A stretch of DNA of 39,160 nt from Collinsella tanakaei YIT 12063 (GTDB lineage Bacteria; Actinomycetota; Coriobacteriia; Coriobacteriales; Coriobacteriaceae). The stretch covers positions 236,959-276,118 of the forward strand of contig NZ_JH126469.1 in assembly GCF_000225705.1 (NCBI RefSeq), given 5' to 3'. Below the pieces are notes generated by a model, which had not been told where the DNA came from, did not search any database, and saw only the letters and a program-made list of their open reading frames with translations. Shown here piece by piece: positions 30,460-34,160 of this stretch; the first letter of the stretch is position 1; each line of letters begins with the position of its first letter. The translations under genes and the position numbers were made by a program.

Positions 30460-30498
30460 GAAGCGTCCTCACCGTTTCGGTGGGGGCGCTTCTTTTTT
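30460..30498 (+). terminator. Rho-independent terminator of IIA-nagB
   Basis: GAAGCGTCCTCACCG (30460-30474) pairs with CGGTGGGGGCGCTTC (30478-30492), 15 pairs with two G-U, triloop TTT, then six T. Confidence 0.92.
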
Positions 30499-30538
30499 CA
30501 CCATACATGGGAAATGTCGGGTCGATATTACCGTTTTA

Positions 30539-30834
30539 TTGACAAAAACATCGCGCCTTTGAAAATTAAGCATCTTGCGGTCGCGGTGAATGGGAAAAAA
30601 GATGCAAGCGGAATATCAAAATCGAAACAATATAAGCGTAAAGCACTAACATTTACTGATGGTATGGCAGGAAATGGTGCACGTATCGCGCGGAGGGGGC
30701 GCTGTGCGGCATGCGGGGTTCTTACAAAGATAGCTCTCGAATCTTACTGTCTATTGAAAGTGAGAAATTTCCAAACGCGGCTGACGCGCGCTGGGCCATA
30801 CCCTTACATCAAGGAGCGCATGGAGGGAGATAAA
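30539..30834 (+). promoter_or_regulatory. Promoter and long AT-rich leader of the STAND/SARP regulator
   Basis: A consensus TTGACA -35 (30539-30544) is followed after 17 bases by AAAATT (30562-30567), a weak -10. The next 267 bases are AT-rich at first and carry an open frame continuous with the regulator, but its codon use is poor and it lacks family similarity, so I treat it as leader. No hairpin stands out. Confidence 0.4.
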
Positions 30835-33800
30835 ATGGGAACCAGCGCAGAGACGGTCGGGGATTCAGTGCAGACGGTTGACGAGCAAGCAATTCAAGTT
30901 CAATCAGCGCATAAGGCAGATGCGGGGCTGCCTCAACAAAAAAGGGTGGCTATGGTACCGCGCGAACAGCTTATGAGGTCCATTTCCGCCATGGGTCGAG
31001 ACGCGGGGATTGTGTTGGTGCAGGCTCCTGCTGGATTTGGAAAAACGTCGCTGCTATTGCTGTATAGCGCTTGGGTCAAAGAAGATCCTCAACGTGGACA
31101 GGCGCGGCTTATCGATGCGTCGCGCCGCGAGATCAAAGGCGTAATCGAGTTCTTGGACGATGCGGCTCACGAATCAATTGCCGCGGTCCGACCGTTGCTG
31201 GGTTTGGACAACGTGTCGGTGAAGAACAAGGACGAGGCGCAAGAGCTTGCTTCGGCAGTGCGAGCTTGCCGTGAAGCGGGGTGTGAAATCGTGCTTGTTT
31301 GCGAGCCTGGCCAGGCCGAGCTGGTTACCGCTTTGGGCGACTCCGCCAAGGTGGGGGCAAGGCAGCTGTGTGTGCAGCCGCAGGAATATGCGACGTGGAT
31401 AAAGACGCTGATGATCGATAGCACGCTCGATGCTTATCGCCTGACGGCTGGAATACCGTCGCTGGTCTCCGCCCTTCAGACGATCGCGGGAGAAAAAAGA
31501 TCTTCTGAACTGCTCGAGCGTGAAGTGGAGCGGGTTGTGGGTTCCGTATTGAAGGCTTTGAGCGGCAGGAGAGATTCCCTGTACCAGACGATATGCCTGC
31601 TGTTGCTTTTGGGGTCTGGGTCATTGCGCGAGATTCGACGCGGGGGATGCCGCGTTCAATCGCGCCAAATGCAGCGGCTTATGCATGACTATCCGATTGT
31701 GGTATATGCGCCGGATACAGAAGAGTTCAGCTGCCTTGGAGAGCGTGATGCGGCTTTGGGCAGGTTGCGAGCGGCGATCGCGCGTCGACATCCAGAGTAT
31801 GTTGAGAGGGCGGTTCGCATTCTTTTGCGCGTGGATCGCGTGGACGATGCCGTGCGGCTTATGGAGTCATTTATGGATGTCGCTCGGCGCGTGGAAGCTA
31901 TTGCCAGCAGGCCGATGGCGTTCGCATTCGCGGGACATGCCTCGTTTGTGCGCTCGGCTATGGTGGAGGCTGGTGAGGAAGCGTGTTGTCGCGCCGGCTT
32001 GGGGCTCGTGCTCGCCAGTTGGGCATGCGCGCTCATAACCGGGGAATATCGTACGGCGAGAAATGCGGCGGATCGATTAGCGCGCGAGGCGATGAGAATC
32101 AGTCGAGAGGTCGATGCGGATGAATGGGATAGGGCACTCGCATTCAACGAATACTGGGGTGGGGGAGCAGGCACGGCATTACCGGTTTTATCAAAAGAGA
32201 TGCAAAAGCGTGCGACATACGGTGCTGCCGTGCAGCTACGTCGCGCTCGTCATATTACGCGGTCGCTGATAGAACGGGGACGAGTGCCCGTTGGCGAGCA
32301 TCGGGAACATGAGGCAACGTGTCCAAATGCACTTGACGTCCCATCGATGCTGCTGGAGATGGCATTCGATCTGGGCCAGATAATGTGTGACGGGCCGAGC
32401 GTTCAAGGTGAAGTCGATGCCCGCTTGCAGGATGAGATAGCAAGGGCGAGCGAAAAGAGATTGGAGGCGGTGGTAAACCGTCTTCGCGCCGTTGCGGCGA
32501 TGGGGCGCCTTATGGCAGGTAGACCGGTGGTAGATGAGCGCGCGTTTGTAGATGCGGAGAGAACGTCGCTGCGCGAGTCGGACCATACGGCACAGCTGTT
32601 TTGCACCGTGGCACAGGGTTGGATGGACTTCTCTATGGGGCAGCAACTCAATGCGAGTTTTAGAGCCCAGCAAGCGGGCAAGACCGCTCCAGATGACCTT
32701 GCGTTTGTGCGCGCCTGGGCCAAGCTGCTTGAATGCGCCACACGTTTGCGGTCCACATCGAGGATGATCATTTCCCAAGAAGCAGACTTGCTCGACTTAT
32801 CCGCAGAGACGGACGATGCCGCGGATGCATGGACTACGACGCTGCTGCTATCTGCCGCGCACCATGATGCCGAGCTTTCAGCTTGGTTCTCCATGCATCG
32901 CGACATATTGCTGGCGAAATGGTTGAGGCCGCAGGTTAGATTGGCTATGTTTCATCTGGGCGAGATGTCCGCCGCGGTGCGGCGGCTTGTGCCTCCCTCT
33001 ATGGTGGATAAGTTTCAGCTGGGAGATGCCGCGGTGCGCAATGCCGAGCTTGAAGTGCTGGATGCCGTGCTGGAGCCCCAGATAGGTCAGATTTCTATCA
33101 GGCTCTTTGGCGGGCTCAGGGTGGAGCGAAACGGCCATGTGTTGACGGGGCATGATTGGAAGCGCAAGCGGGCGAGCGTGCTGGCGGCACGTTTGGCGCT
33201 GGTGCTGGGATCGTATATCGGTAGGGGTCAGCTCATAGATGAAATGTGGCCCAACTCAACATACAAGCGCGCCCGCCAGAATCTCTACGGGGCGATCACG
33301 GCCTTGATTCAAGCGCTGGGACAACAGCAAGATGGCGTCCAATACGTAATCAAGCAGGGTAAAAGCATCGGTCTCAATGCGGAATTCGTAACAACGGACC
33401 TCATGCAGTTCGACATACTGGCACGCCAGGTTCTTCTCAAGCGCACGGGTATGACCAACAGACAACTTATCGATGCGTGCCTCAAAATGGAGCAGATCTA
33501 CACCGGTGCGCTATACGTTCCGGACTCCGGTGATGTCACCTGTTTTGTCAGGCTGAGGCGCTCCTACCAATCTAAATTTATCGACTGCATGGTGCGCGGT
33601 ATTGATTTGTCGATAGAGGAGAACGATTTGCCATCGGCAACGTGGCTTGTGGAGGCTGCCCTTAAACACGAGCCAACGCGCGAGGACGTGGTGCGGCACG
33701 CTATGACGGTTTACAACCTCAACGGCAGGAAGCGCGAGGTGGTCGAACTGTATGGCAGCCACCTGTATTACCTTCATCACGAGCTGCATATGGAGCCCGA

Positions 33801-33864
33801 AGACGAGACGCGCCTCCTGTATGAGAACATCATGGGTGAGAAGAGGGTGAACGAGTTGCTCTAG
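30835..33864 (+). CDS. Large STAND-ATPase regulator with C-terminal SARP-type DNA-binding and BTAD domains
   Basis: 1009 residues from ATG 30835 (GGAGGGAG five bases upstream); ATG 30820 with AAGGAG is also possible. N-terminal MalT-like NTPase: Walker A QAPAGFGKTS (about 63-72), a Walker-B-like RPLLGLDNV and a later IVLVCEPG strand. The middle, about 300-740, is helical and repeat-like, resembling the TPR/sensor part of MalT and AfsR proteins. An OmpR-type winged helix at about 750-835 (ISIRLFGGLRVERNGH; KRKRASVLAARLALV; LIDEMWP) leads into a bacterial transcriptional activator domain to the end. Domain order is the reverse of AfsR/SARP proteins. Signal and target are unknown. Its stop overlaps the yhbY stop. 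Confidence 0.82.
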   Translation: MGTSAETVGDSVQTVDEQAIQVQSAHKADAGLPQQKRVAMVPREQLMRSISAMGRDAGIVLVQAPAGFGKTSLLLLYSAWVKEDPQRGQARLIDASRREIKGVIEFLDDAAHESIAAVRPLLGLDNVSVKNKDEAQELASAVRACREAGCEIVLVCEPGQAELVTALGDSAKVGARQLCVQPQEYATWIKTLMIDSTLDAYRLTAGIPSLVSALQTIAGEKRSSELLEREVERVVGSVLKALSGRRDSLYQTICLLLLLGSGSLREIRRGGCRVQSRQMQRLMHDYPIVVYAPDTEEFSCLGERDAALGRLRAAIARRHPEYVERAVRILLRVDRVDDAVRLMESFMDVARRVEAIASRPMAFAFAGHASFVRSAMVEAGEEACCRAGLGLVLASWACALITGEYRTARNAADRLAREAMRISREVDADEWDRALAFNEYWGGGAGTALPVLSKEMQKRATYGAAVQLRRARHITRSLIERGRVPVGEHREHEATCPNALDVPSMLLEMAFDLGQIMCDGPSVQGEVDARLQDEIARASEKRLEAVVNRLRAVAAMGRLMAGRPVVDERAFVDAERTSLRESDHTAQLFCTVAQGWMDFSMGQQLNASFRAQQAGKTAPDDLAFVRAWAKLLECATRLRSTSRMIISQEADLLDLSAETDDAADAWTTTLLLSAAHHDAELSAWFSMHRDILLAKWLRPQVRLAMFHLGEMSAAVRRLVPPSMVDKFQLGDAAVRNAELEVLDAVLEPQIGQISIRLFGGLRVERNGHVLTGHDWKRKRASVLAARLALVLGSYIGRGQLIDEMWPNSTYKRARQNLYGAITALIQALGQQQDGVQYVIKQGKSIGLNAEFVTTDLMQFDILARQVLLKRTGMTNRQLIDACLKMEQIYTGALYVPDSGDVTCFVRLRRSYQSKFIDCMVRGIDLSIEENDLPSATWLVEAALKHEPTREDVVRHAMTVYNLNGRKREVVELYGSHLYYLHHELHMEPEDETRLLYENIMGEKRVNELL

Positions 33865-34160
33865 ACCAGCTTGATCTTCTCGATATCATCGCGGCTGCTC
33901 TCGCGGTACAGCGAGAAGCGATGGCCAATGACTTGGACCACATCGGCGTTGGTGCGCTCGGCGAGCATATCGGCGGCCTCACGGGCTTCAAGGTCGCTGC
34001 CGTCCTGCACCGCGCACTTGATGAGCTCGCGGTTTTCAAGAGCGGCCTCGGTCTCCTTGACTAGAGCGTCGGTGATGTCGAATTTGCCAATATGGATGAT
34101 GGGATTGAGGTGATGGGCGAGGCTGCGGAGCTGACGAACCTGCTTGCCGGTAAGTGCCAT
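33861..34160 (-). CDS. yhbY: RNA-binding protein YhbY (CRS1-YhbY domain), ribosome assembly factor
   Basis: 99-residue single-domain RNA-binding protein associated with pre-50S particles. Conserved features: LTGKQVRQLRSLAHHLNPI, IGKFDITDALVKETEAALE, then RELIKC and the late VIGHRFSLYR strand. The usual Gly after the first Lys block is present (HIGK). It ends in the same CTAG as the convergent regulator gene (33861-33864). The ribosome-binding site is weak. In other bacteria it often neighbours obgE or nadD, which are not seen here. Confidence 0.92.
   Translation of the reverse strand: MALTGKQVRQLRSLAHHLNPIIHIGKFDITDALVKETEAALENRELIKCAVQDGSDLEAREAADMLAERTNADVVQVIGHRFSLYRESSRDDIEKIKLV

What the first reader, a model, noticed from the sequence alone, without database searches (positions are those of the whole stretch)
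30835..33864. STAND ATPase fused to a C-terminal SARP/BTAD DNA-binding module
The protein joins a MalT-like P-loop NTPase at the N-terminus, about 440 residues of helical sensor-like sequence, and an OmpR-type winged helix plus BTAD at the C-terminus. SARP regulators of the AfsR kind place the DNA-binding part first, so the order is inverted. It may represent a Coriobacteriia regulator group with unknown signal. The gene is solitary, behind a roughly 270-base AT-rich leader.
Basis: partly seen in the sequence, partly recalled or inferred. Interest (0 to 1): 0.55.

Follow-up and report, generated by a model that had tools for sequence, protein, structure and literature searches.

The report
Likely DNA-uptake master switch in Coriobacteriia
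A large, apparently unstudied regulator protein found in most sampled Coriobacteriia (a class of bacteria common in the gut) is probably the switch that turns on the genes for taking up and recombining foreign DNA, a process whose control is little understood in this phylum.

Summary
ORF 30835-33864 (+) encodes 1009 aa: a MalT-like STAND NTPase, a long helical sensor-like region, and a C-terminal OmpR-type winged helix plus BTAD that superposes on AfsR (Z 19.6) and EmbR. The order is inverted relative to AfsR but is MalT's, and also occurs in a Chloroflexi protein, so architecture alone is not unique. What is new is its reach. It occurs in 65 of 65 genomes of the family and 363 of 396 sampled from the class. 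Many orthologues have SARP-type operators upstream (direct repeats, 11-bp period). A motif trained only on those upstreams also marks comEA and recA promoters across genera; control promoters are null. Genome-wide scans in some genomes find such operators before comEA-comEC, recA, rpsF-ssb, yraN-comM(-dprA), Flp-pilus cpaB and nuclease-like or toxin-antitoxin genes; in one Gordonibacter-like genome up to nine tandem units precede the same core genes. Best reading: a SARP-type activator of a competence (DNA uptake and recombination) regulon. That this protein, rather than an OmpR-type response regulator, binds the repeats is inferred. The window's own genome shows no clear site, and its recognition helix lacks a conserved Arg/Lys.

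The parts
30835..33864 (+). STAND-sensor-BTAD regulator gene, 1009 aa
30949..31794 (+). STAND/MalT-like NTPase module (residues about 39-320)
   Evidence: profile match to MalT 8bob; CED-4 and MalT fold matches within residues 30-346
31024..31050 (+). Walker A, APAGFGKTS (residues 64-72)
   Evidence: K70 in 53 of 57 aligned rows
31195..31209 (+). Walker B-like strand LLGLD (residues 121-125)
   Evidence: D125 in 49, E in 7, Q in 1 of 57 rows; predicted strand 121-127
31450..31458 (+). GxP motif (GIP, residues 206-208)
   Evidence: G206 and P208 invariant in 31 family sequences; that GxP is a STAND hallmark is recalled
31795..33078 (+). helical sensor-like region (residues about 321-748)
   Evidence: secondary structure of the model
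33085..33378 (+). OmpR-type winged helix (residues about 751-848)
   Evidence: AfsR/EmbR superposition
33262..33318 (+). predicted recognition helix (residues 810-828); I825 replaces the conserved Arg/Lys
   Evidence: R or K in 55 of 57 rows; exceptions are this protein (I) and L061 (T)
33397..33843 (+). BTAD (residues about 855-1003)
   Evidence: Pfam BTAD, best stretch 908-999; model
30460..30492 (+). intrinsic terminator ending the upstream (nagB) unit
   Evidence: 15-pair stem plus T run
30539..30566 (+). single promoter-like match (TTGACA-16-GAAAAT); weak evidence, 0.6 expected by chance
30493..30834 (+). leader; only a sub-threshold Rfam match nearby and no recognisable 11-bp-repeat operator in this genome

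Best explanation
The protein is a signal-gated, SARP-type transcription activator whose regulon is natural competence: DNA import (ComEA-ComEC, Flp pilus), single-strand handling (SSB, RecA, DprA, ComM, YraN) and accessory nuclease-like and toxin-antitoxin genes. The STAND NTPase plus helical sensor holds the C-terminal winged-helix/BTAD module off until an unknown signal and ATP allow assembly; the assembled protein then lays several DNA-binding domains side by side on tandem 11-bp repeats whose last unit lies about 9 bp before a -10 hexamer, and recruits RNA polymerase as AfsR does. In two families the regulator gene carries the same repeat upstream in reversed orientation, probably for feedback. 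Shown by computation: domains, fold, near-universality in the class sample, operators, neighbouring genes, spacing to a -10-like hexamer, shared motif between regulator and target promoters. Inferred: that this protein binds them, the direction of control, ATP gating, competence as phenotype.
For: Fold and domains. Distribution: 65 of 65 family genomes, 363 of 396 class genomes, one BTAD match in the window's genome. Regulator upstreams: 11-bp period in 21 of 35 sequences against 10.0 (sd 2.8) in shuffles; fitted motif sum 284 against 195 (sd 11.6); leave-one-out, 16 of 31 at p<=0.05, 15 of the 16 in one orientation. Transfer of that motif: comEA in 30 genomes, sum 256 against 104 (sd 10), 22 of 30 at p<=0.05; recA in 29 genomes, 237 against 114.5 (sd 8.7), 20 of 29; control upstreams (nagB, yhbY and one other), 182.6 against 185.5 (sd 12.4), 1 of 55. 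Genome-wide: G048 23 matches against 0 for the reversed pattern, G055 24 against 1, G053 10 against 1, G050 9 against 2; neighbours include ComEA-ComEC, RecA, RpsF-SSB, YraN-ComM, an endonuclease IV type, CpaB. Second family: G090 83 against 1, G109 23 against 4, G177 16 against 1; G090 arrays precede ComEA, RecA, RpsF-SSB, YraN with a ComM-DprA fusion, CpaB, AbiEi and Gp49/HigB-like toxins. Third family: RecA, YraN, ComEA (Pfam) and the regulator gene itself in four genomes. TAnnnT 9 nt after the last unit in 8 of 40 sites against 0.47 per offset by shuffle, never above 4; the AfsR paper gives 8 bp, and repeats 11 or 22 bp apart (PMC10936776, passages).
Against: No recognisable site in the window's own genome: own gene 3.8 (p 0.63), comEA p=0.065, recA p=0.16; the one genome-wide match (1 against 1 control) lies inside a guanylate-kinase-like frame. 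Genome-wide enrichment is plain in only 4 of the 12 family genomes tried, 3 of 11 genomes of the second family and few of 16 in the third (G121 13 against 2, G172 7 against 0; G103 4 against 7, G111 3 against 9), so unit sequences differ or sites are fewer. 15 of 31 regulator upstreams, 8 of 30 comEA and 9 of 29 recA upstreams are not significant. In the 20 distant genomes the regulator's own upstream shows no array by eye, except one site in L060. OmpR-family response regulators also bind 11-bp direct repeats (recalled), so geometry does not name the protein. CpaB in G055 lies on the reversed side of its site. Four of 57 orthologues lack the Walker A lysine. No expression, binding or transformation data exist here.
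Confidence: 0.65

Rival explanations
1. The 11-bp repeat regulon is real, but an OmpR/PhoB-type response regulator binds it; the STAND-BTAD gene is only one regulon member and acts elsewhere or downstream.
For: OmpR-family winged helices also bind 11-bp direct repeats (recalled); the regulator gene's site is turned the other way from most target sites (TCTGAC in the gene's direction in 15 of 16 significant regulator sites, 3 of 22 comEA and 0 of 20 recA sites); no array upstream of the gene in most distant genomes.
Against: The repeats sit at this gene across genera of two families; the protein has the fold that binds such repeats and is the only BTAD match in the window's genome; arrays of up to nine units fit a multimeric STAND scaffold (inference); distribution is class-wide.
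Confidence: 0.23
2. The regulon serves a DNA-damage or phage-stress response rather than competence for transformation; the regulator is the same.
For: RecA, SSB, an endonuclease IV type, toxin-antitoxin and AbiEi genes are included.
Against: ComEA, ComEC, ComM-DprA and Flp-pilus CpaB serve DNA uptake and transformation (roles recalled); in the window's genome recA has in addition a LexA-like palindrome by eye, so damage control has its own site.
Confidence: 0.2
3. The protein regulates something local (amino-sugar use with nagB, or secA-prfB), as its position suggests.
For: nagB lies within 1.5 kb in 33 of 43 family loci; SecA lies downstream on the same strand in 12 of 20 distant loci.
Against: Position differs between the family and the rest of the class; a terminator separates it from nagB; nagB upstreams lack the motif.
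Confidence: 0.05

Closest known systems
AfsR and other large SARPs (Streptomyces)
   Same: OmpR-type winged helix plus BTAD with an NTPase and a helical-repeat part in one chain; direct repeats of 11-bp period just before the -10 (PMC10936776, passages)
   Different: Domain order inverted; predicted targets are competence genes rather than antibiotic genes; core gene of a class
MalT / LAL regulators
   Same: STAND NTPase at the N-terminus, helical sensor, DNA-binding at the C-terminus; profile match to MalT
   Different: SARP-type DNA-binding module instead of LuxR-type helix-turn-helix
EmbR (Mycobacterium tuberculosis)
   Same: OmpR-type winged helix plus BTAD fold (Z 18.5)
   Different: EmbR has the DNA-binding part first and an FHA domain (recalled), no STAND NTPase
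Competence master regulators ComK, SigX/ComX, TfoX/Sxy
   Same: Same kind of target set (recalled for those regulators): comEA-comEC, recA, ssb, dprA, comM
   Different: No match to those families in Pfam or NCBIfam; different mechanism
Chloroflexi STAND-BTAD protein (L089)
   Same: AAA at the N-terminus, TPR, BTAD at the C-terminus
   Different: Distant (21% identity); targets unknown

Membership tests
SARP (AfsR/EmbR type) | OmpR-type winged helix followed by BTAD | tested here: met
   Pfam BTAD; AfsR Z 19.6, rmsd 3.8, 250 aligned; EmbR Z 18.5, rmsd 3.2, 244 aligned; profile hits
SARP (AfsR/EmbR type) | DNA-binding module at the N-terminus | tested here: not met
   Module at about residues 751-1003 of 1009
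SARP (AfsR/EmbR type) | Binds direct repeats of 11-bp period about 8 bp before the -10 | tested here: inconclusive
   Such repeats exist upstream of the gene in relatives and of predicted targets, but binding was not tested
STAND / MalT-like | P-loop NTPase with Walker A, Walker B and GxP motif | tested here: met
   Motifs; MalT profile match E=6.7e-11 over profile 20-390
MalT / LAL subfamily | C-terminal LuxR-type (GerE) helix-turn-helix | tested here: not met
   No GerE match at E<=10; BTAD instead
OmpR-type response regulators | Receiver domain with winged helix | tested here: not met
   No receiver domain in Pfam at E<=10
Competence regulators ComK, SigX, TfoX | Homology to those families | tested here: not met
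   No such family among the Pfam or NCBIfam matches

The most novel reading that the evidence does not exclude
A STAND-sensor-SARP protein is the ancient, nearly universal master regulator of natural competence in Coriobacteriia. It switches on a conserved DNA-uptake and recombination regulon by assembling along arrays of up to nine tandem 11-bp operators, so that its signal-driven multimerisation is counted out on DNA; operator sequence drifts between genera while target genes and the 11-bp period stay fixed.
Probability: 0.5. Interest if true: 0.9.

Novelty: new variant of a known kind. Interest (0 to 1): 0.8.

Why it matters
Control of competence in Actinomycetota is an open question: the 2026 Micrococcus luteus paper states that little is known about it and that the upstream signals or regulatory cascade in M. 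luteus remain to be identified (PMC12849477, abstract). The listings of my searches (several of them capped, e.g. 10 of 1,085 papers) showed no competence regulator for Coriobacteriia. If right, this gives one gene, one operator grammar and a target list to test, and possibly a way to make gut Coriobacteriia such as Collinsella and Gordonibacter genetically tractable. It would also extend SARP-type regulators from antibiotic control to DNA uptake, with an inverted STAND architecture.

Tried and rejected
Architecture as the novelty: rejected, because the same order occurs outside the class and in MalT. nagB or secA as the controlled neighbour: rejected as the main reading. RNA element in the leader: Rfam gave only one sub-threshold match, over the terminator. 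First genome-contig scan with the single protein found no relative; the second, with alignment A1, gave named relatives. Site in the window's own genome: looked for in its regulator, comEA and recA upstreams and genome-wide, not found; the single pattern match there is inside a coding frame. Lag-11 scan of 20 distant ComEC loci: above the shuffle maximum only in G177, G109 and G090. PDB search with the single sequence found nothing. NCBIfam on recurrent 310-360 aa target proteins found nothing. The frame of L122 was misread and is not used. Paper search was badly set (whole-word 'coriobacteri' cannot match) and says nothing about the class; one search repeated the point and its listing (10 of 13) showed no relevant paper. 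The helical middle was not folded alone, so no claim is made about a new fold.

Rows dropped or chosen before counts: four near-identical upstreams (L041, L036, L008, L037) were dropped; the upstream set itself is 35 of the 43 family loci then held (most of the near-identical C. aerofaciens group left out); the comEA test used the 30 of 65 genomes for which loci were returned; the recA test used 29 chosen genomes. Target neighbourhoods were read for all 12 non-own loci of G048, all 17 of G055 and the non-own loci of G050 (but for one site close to its own gene), G052, G049 and G051; those of G053, G047, G056, G062 and G063 were not read. In the second family only G090 was read; G109 and G177 only at comEA. 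In the third family 17 loci were read. G048, G055 and relatives were chosen for the first scan because their regulator upstreams looked strongest, so enrichment there is not a random sample; likewise the second pattern was read off comEA promoters of the second family. Genomes are related, so per-genome p values are not independent.

On the second check of this report I changed: counts for SecA and nagB neighbours, the phylum loci read, the group name for the 11 genomes, and the limits of paper listings; I added, and lowered the novel case from 0.55 to 0.50 and the best explanation from 0.66 to 0.65 because orientation and unnamed-gene exceptions are now stated.
Full report
OBSERVATION. Pfam finds BTAD at the C-terminus (E=1.3e-7). 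The NTPase is weak in the single sequence but firm with a class-wide profile: MalT chain 8bob over profile positions 20-390, E=6.7e-11; EmbR 2.9e-11; AfsR 5.1e-4. AlphaFold with 17 sequences gave pLDDT 82.6 and pTM 0.65. Foldseek and VIA-align place residues 745-1005 on AfsR (Z 19.6, rmsd 3.8, 250 aligned) and EmbR (Z 18.5), and residues 30-346 on CED-4 (Z 15.6), other STAND proteins and MalT (30-232, Z 12.2). The gene is its own unit: a strong terminator closes the nagB side and the next gene, yhbY, is convergent. nagB and yhbY are confirmed by Pfam; rplM, rpsI, nrdJ and EIIA are names given by eye.

DISTRIBUTION. All 65 of 65 genomes of the family match; in 63 the match is one piece at 36-43% identity, in G011 it is broken, in G054 split over two contigs. 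In a sample of 396 genomes of the class 363 match at E<=0.001 (301 of 314 of good quality); outside the family the listed matches run mainly over residues 750-1003, in open frames mostly of 850-1140 aa. Twenty distant members read in full are single frames of 862-1211 aa, all with the C-terminal module; the NTPase part is matched at iE<0.01 in 14 of 20. Named relatives are Collinsella aerofaciens, C. tanakaei, C. vaginalis, Enorma, Candidatus Coprousia and Limicola and, more distantly, Gordonibacter and Denitrobacterium. The six distant genomes closest to the two Gordonibacter proteins (L049, L050, L052, L057, L059, L062) have 48-66% identity to them; I call these Gordonibacter-like. In the window's own genome it is the only BTAD match and has no paralogue at E<=0.1. 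In the phylum sample, which includes class members, 180 of 296 genomes match the profile, outside the class mostly over the BTAD part. Of eight loci outside the class whose frames I read, seven have BTAD first and one (L124) last. A Chloroflexi protein also has it last (L089).

NEIGHBOURS. In the family, nagB lies within 1.5 kb in 33 of 43 loci and yhbY in 34 of 43. In 13 of 20 distant loci a SecA gene lies in the fetched stretch (cluster by similarity; one member checked by Pfam); in 12 it is downstream on the same strand, in two of those with other picked frames between, and in L057 it is on the other side. In five of them a release-factor gene follows (PCRF and RF-1 domains). Neither neighbourhood is conserved throughout.

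THE LEAD. Reading the upstream regions showed repeats such as TCTAACCaataTCTGACCagaaTCTGACCggggTCTGACC. A period of 11 was the strongest of periods 7-30 (21 of 35 sequences against 10.0, sd 2.8, in shuffles). A two-unit motif fitted to 31 upstreams scored 284 against 195 (sd 11.6) in shuffles treated the same way. Leave-one-out on both strands: 16 of 31 at p<=0.05, 15 of them with TCTGAC in the gene's direction. The window's own gene is not among them (p 0.63).

TRANSFER TEST. The motif learned on the regulator's upstreams alone was then applied to other genes. comEA upstreams of 30 genomes: sum 256 against 104 (sd 10, maximum 132), 22 of 30 at p<=0.05. recA upstreams of 29 genomes: 237 against 114.5 (sd 8.7, maximum 143), 20 of 29. 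Control upstreams (nagB, yhbY and one further neighbour, 55 sequences): 182.6 against 185.5 (sd 12.4), 1 of 55. At comEA and recA the site is turned the other way from the regulator's (19 of 22 and 20 of 20 significant sites). The sequences are related, so these are not independent tests, but the controls come from the same genomes.

GENOME-WIDE. YCTRACNNNNNYCTRAC, against the same pattern read backwards: G048 23 to 0, G055 24 to 1, G053 10 to 1, G050 9 to 2, G052 4 to 1, G063 4 to 1, G047 2 to 0, G049 2 to 2, G051 1 to 0, G062 1 to 2, G056 1 to 3, G000 (the window's genome) 1 to 1, the last inside a guanylate-kinase-like frame. Genes next to the sites, one member of each checked by Pfam or NCBIfam: ComEA (SLBB and HHH_3; comE model below its cut-off) with ComEC, a cluster seen in four genomes; RecA in two; ribosomal S6 with SSB in two; UPF0102 (YraN) with ComM; an endonuclease IV type; Flp-pilus CpaB (on the reversed side of its site); SpaA-type surface protein; PrmC; a weak Phd-type antitoxin match; and a recurrent family mostly of 320-390 aa, one with an MTES_1575 nuclease-like match below its cut-off. 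Several sites have no named gene downstream.

OPERATOR GRAMMAR. Read toward most target genes the unit is GTYAGA every 11 bp, in several promoters with four units. A TAnnnT hexamer starts 9 nt after the last unit in 8 of 40 sites (2 more at 10); shuffles average 0.47 per offset and never exceed 4. The AfsR structure paper describes SARP promoters as direct repeats 11 or 22 bp apart with the last repeat 8 bp from the -10, bound side by side by SARP protomers (PMC10936776, passages only).

SECOND FAMILY. In several genomes of the family that holds the Gordonibacter-like ones, comEA is preceded by 11-bp arrays with another unit (GCTGGA/GCTTGA). Lag-11 self-similarity over 4.8 kb exceeds the shuffle maximum in 3 of 20 distant ComEC loci (G177, G109, G090). 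GCTKGANNNNNGCTKGA in 11 genomes of this family: G090 83 to 1 (20 places, up to nine units), G109 23 to 4, G177 16 to 1; the other eight are at 0-5 to 0-3. In G090, 12 of the 20 places have a named gene beside them: comEA (Pfam), RecA, YraN with a fused ComM-DprA, S6-SSB, CpaB, SpaA, AbiEi, three Gp49/HigB-like toxins (one just below cut-off), DUF559, and an MTES_1575-like protein on the divergent side. The core is the same gene set as in G048 and G055, under a different sequence with the same period. ComEC is present in all 20 distant genomes searched.

THIRD FAMILY. Among 16 genomes of another family the first pattern is rarer (G121 13 to 2, G172 7 to 0, G132 6 to 2, G115 5 to 1, G136 4 to 0; G103 4 to 7, G111 3 to 9, the other nine 0-3 to 0-3). 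Yet sites lie before recA in G172 and G136, YraN in G103, G111 (by eye) and G115, ComEA in G115 (Pfam), and the regulator gene itself in G136, G111, G103 and G172, again reversed. G172/G136 and G103/G111 are pairs of close relatives. Sites in G066 (one of two read), G132 and G121 had no convincing gene.

WHICH PROTEIN BINDS. The case for the STAND-BTAD protein is its SARP fold, the repeats at its own gene in two families, its solitary status as BTAD protein and its distribution. The case is not closed: OmpR-type response regulators bind similar repeats (recalled). In the window's protein the recognition helix has Ile at 825, where 55 of 57 aligned proteins have Arg or Lys; AfsR R87, R94 and K95 in that helix contact phosphates, though I did not align residue for residue. 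This could explain why no site is seen in this genome, but G017 and G022 also lack clear sites and keep the Arg, so I treat it as a hint.

MECHANISM. Most likely: signal plus ATP releases or assembles the STAND scaffold; several C-terminal modules bind neighbouring repeats; the module nearest the -10 engages RNA polymerase. The reversed site at its own gene may give negative feedback or drive an unseen divergent transcript. Four of 57 orthologues lack the Walker A lysine, so hydrolysis is unlikely to be needed everywhere.

LITERATURE. Searches (98 badly set; 23, 70, 97 and 101 list only part of their hits). Seen: listings; passages of PMC10936776 and PMC8467076; abstract and outline of PMC12849477; title and start of abstract of PMC4322843 on Flp-pilus-dependent transformation in Actinobacteria. 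None of the listed papers treats competence control, or this protein, in Coriobacteriia; the library lacks most subscription journals.

VERDICT. Real gene, correct domain reading; architecture a variant, not unique. The likely role as competence master regulator of a whole class is, as far as these searches show, unreported, and it is directly testable.

Noticed in passing
L334, L335, L341, L342 (G090): Tandem 11-bp arrays precede Gp49/HigB-like toxin genes and an AbiEi gene: toxin-antitoxin modules appear wired into the same regulon as DNA uptake.
   Followed up: partly
L339:386-2428 (-): A single frame fuses ComM (Mg_chelatase) and DprA (DNA_processg_A) domains in a Gordonibacter-like genome.
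   Followed up: no
L168, L188, L193, L201, L351 and others: A recurrent family mostly of 320-390 aa, two members with a sub-cut-off MTES_1575 restriction-endonuclease-like match, sits beside these operators in several copies per genome; the other members tested have no Pfam or NCBIfam match.
   Followed up: partly
L019, L020, L045, L060: Orthologues without the Walker A lysine: the NTPase may be inactive in some lineages.
   Followed up: no
L047, L048, L061, L062 (distant class members): The regulator gene often lies upstream of secA (and in some loci prfB); in several deep lineages HD-GYP-like genes and a small membrane protein (by eye) lie upstream.
   Followed up: partly
L356 (G103) and L350 (G090): An AhpC-like peroxiredoxin gene lies near a site in two families (by eye).
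   Followed up: no
window 33861-34160 (-): The yhbY gene overlaps the end of the regulator gene by four bases, tail to tail.
   Followed up: no
G011:C68:17053-19976: The orthologue is broken, with a TAG inside, in one genome of the genus.
   Followed up: no
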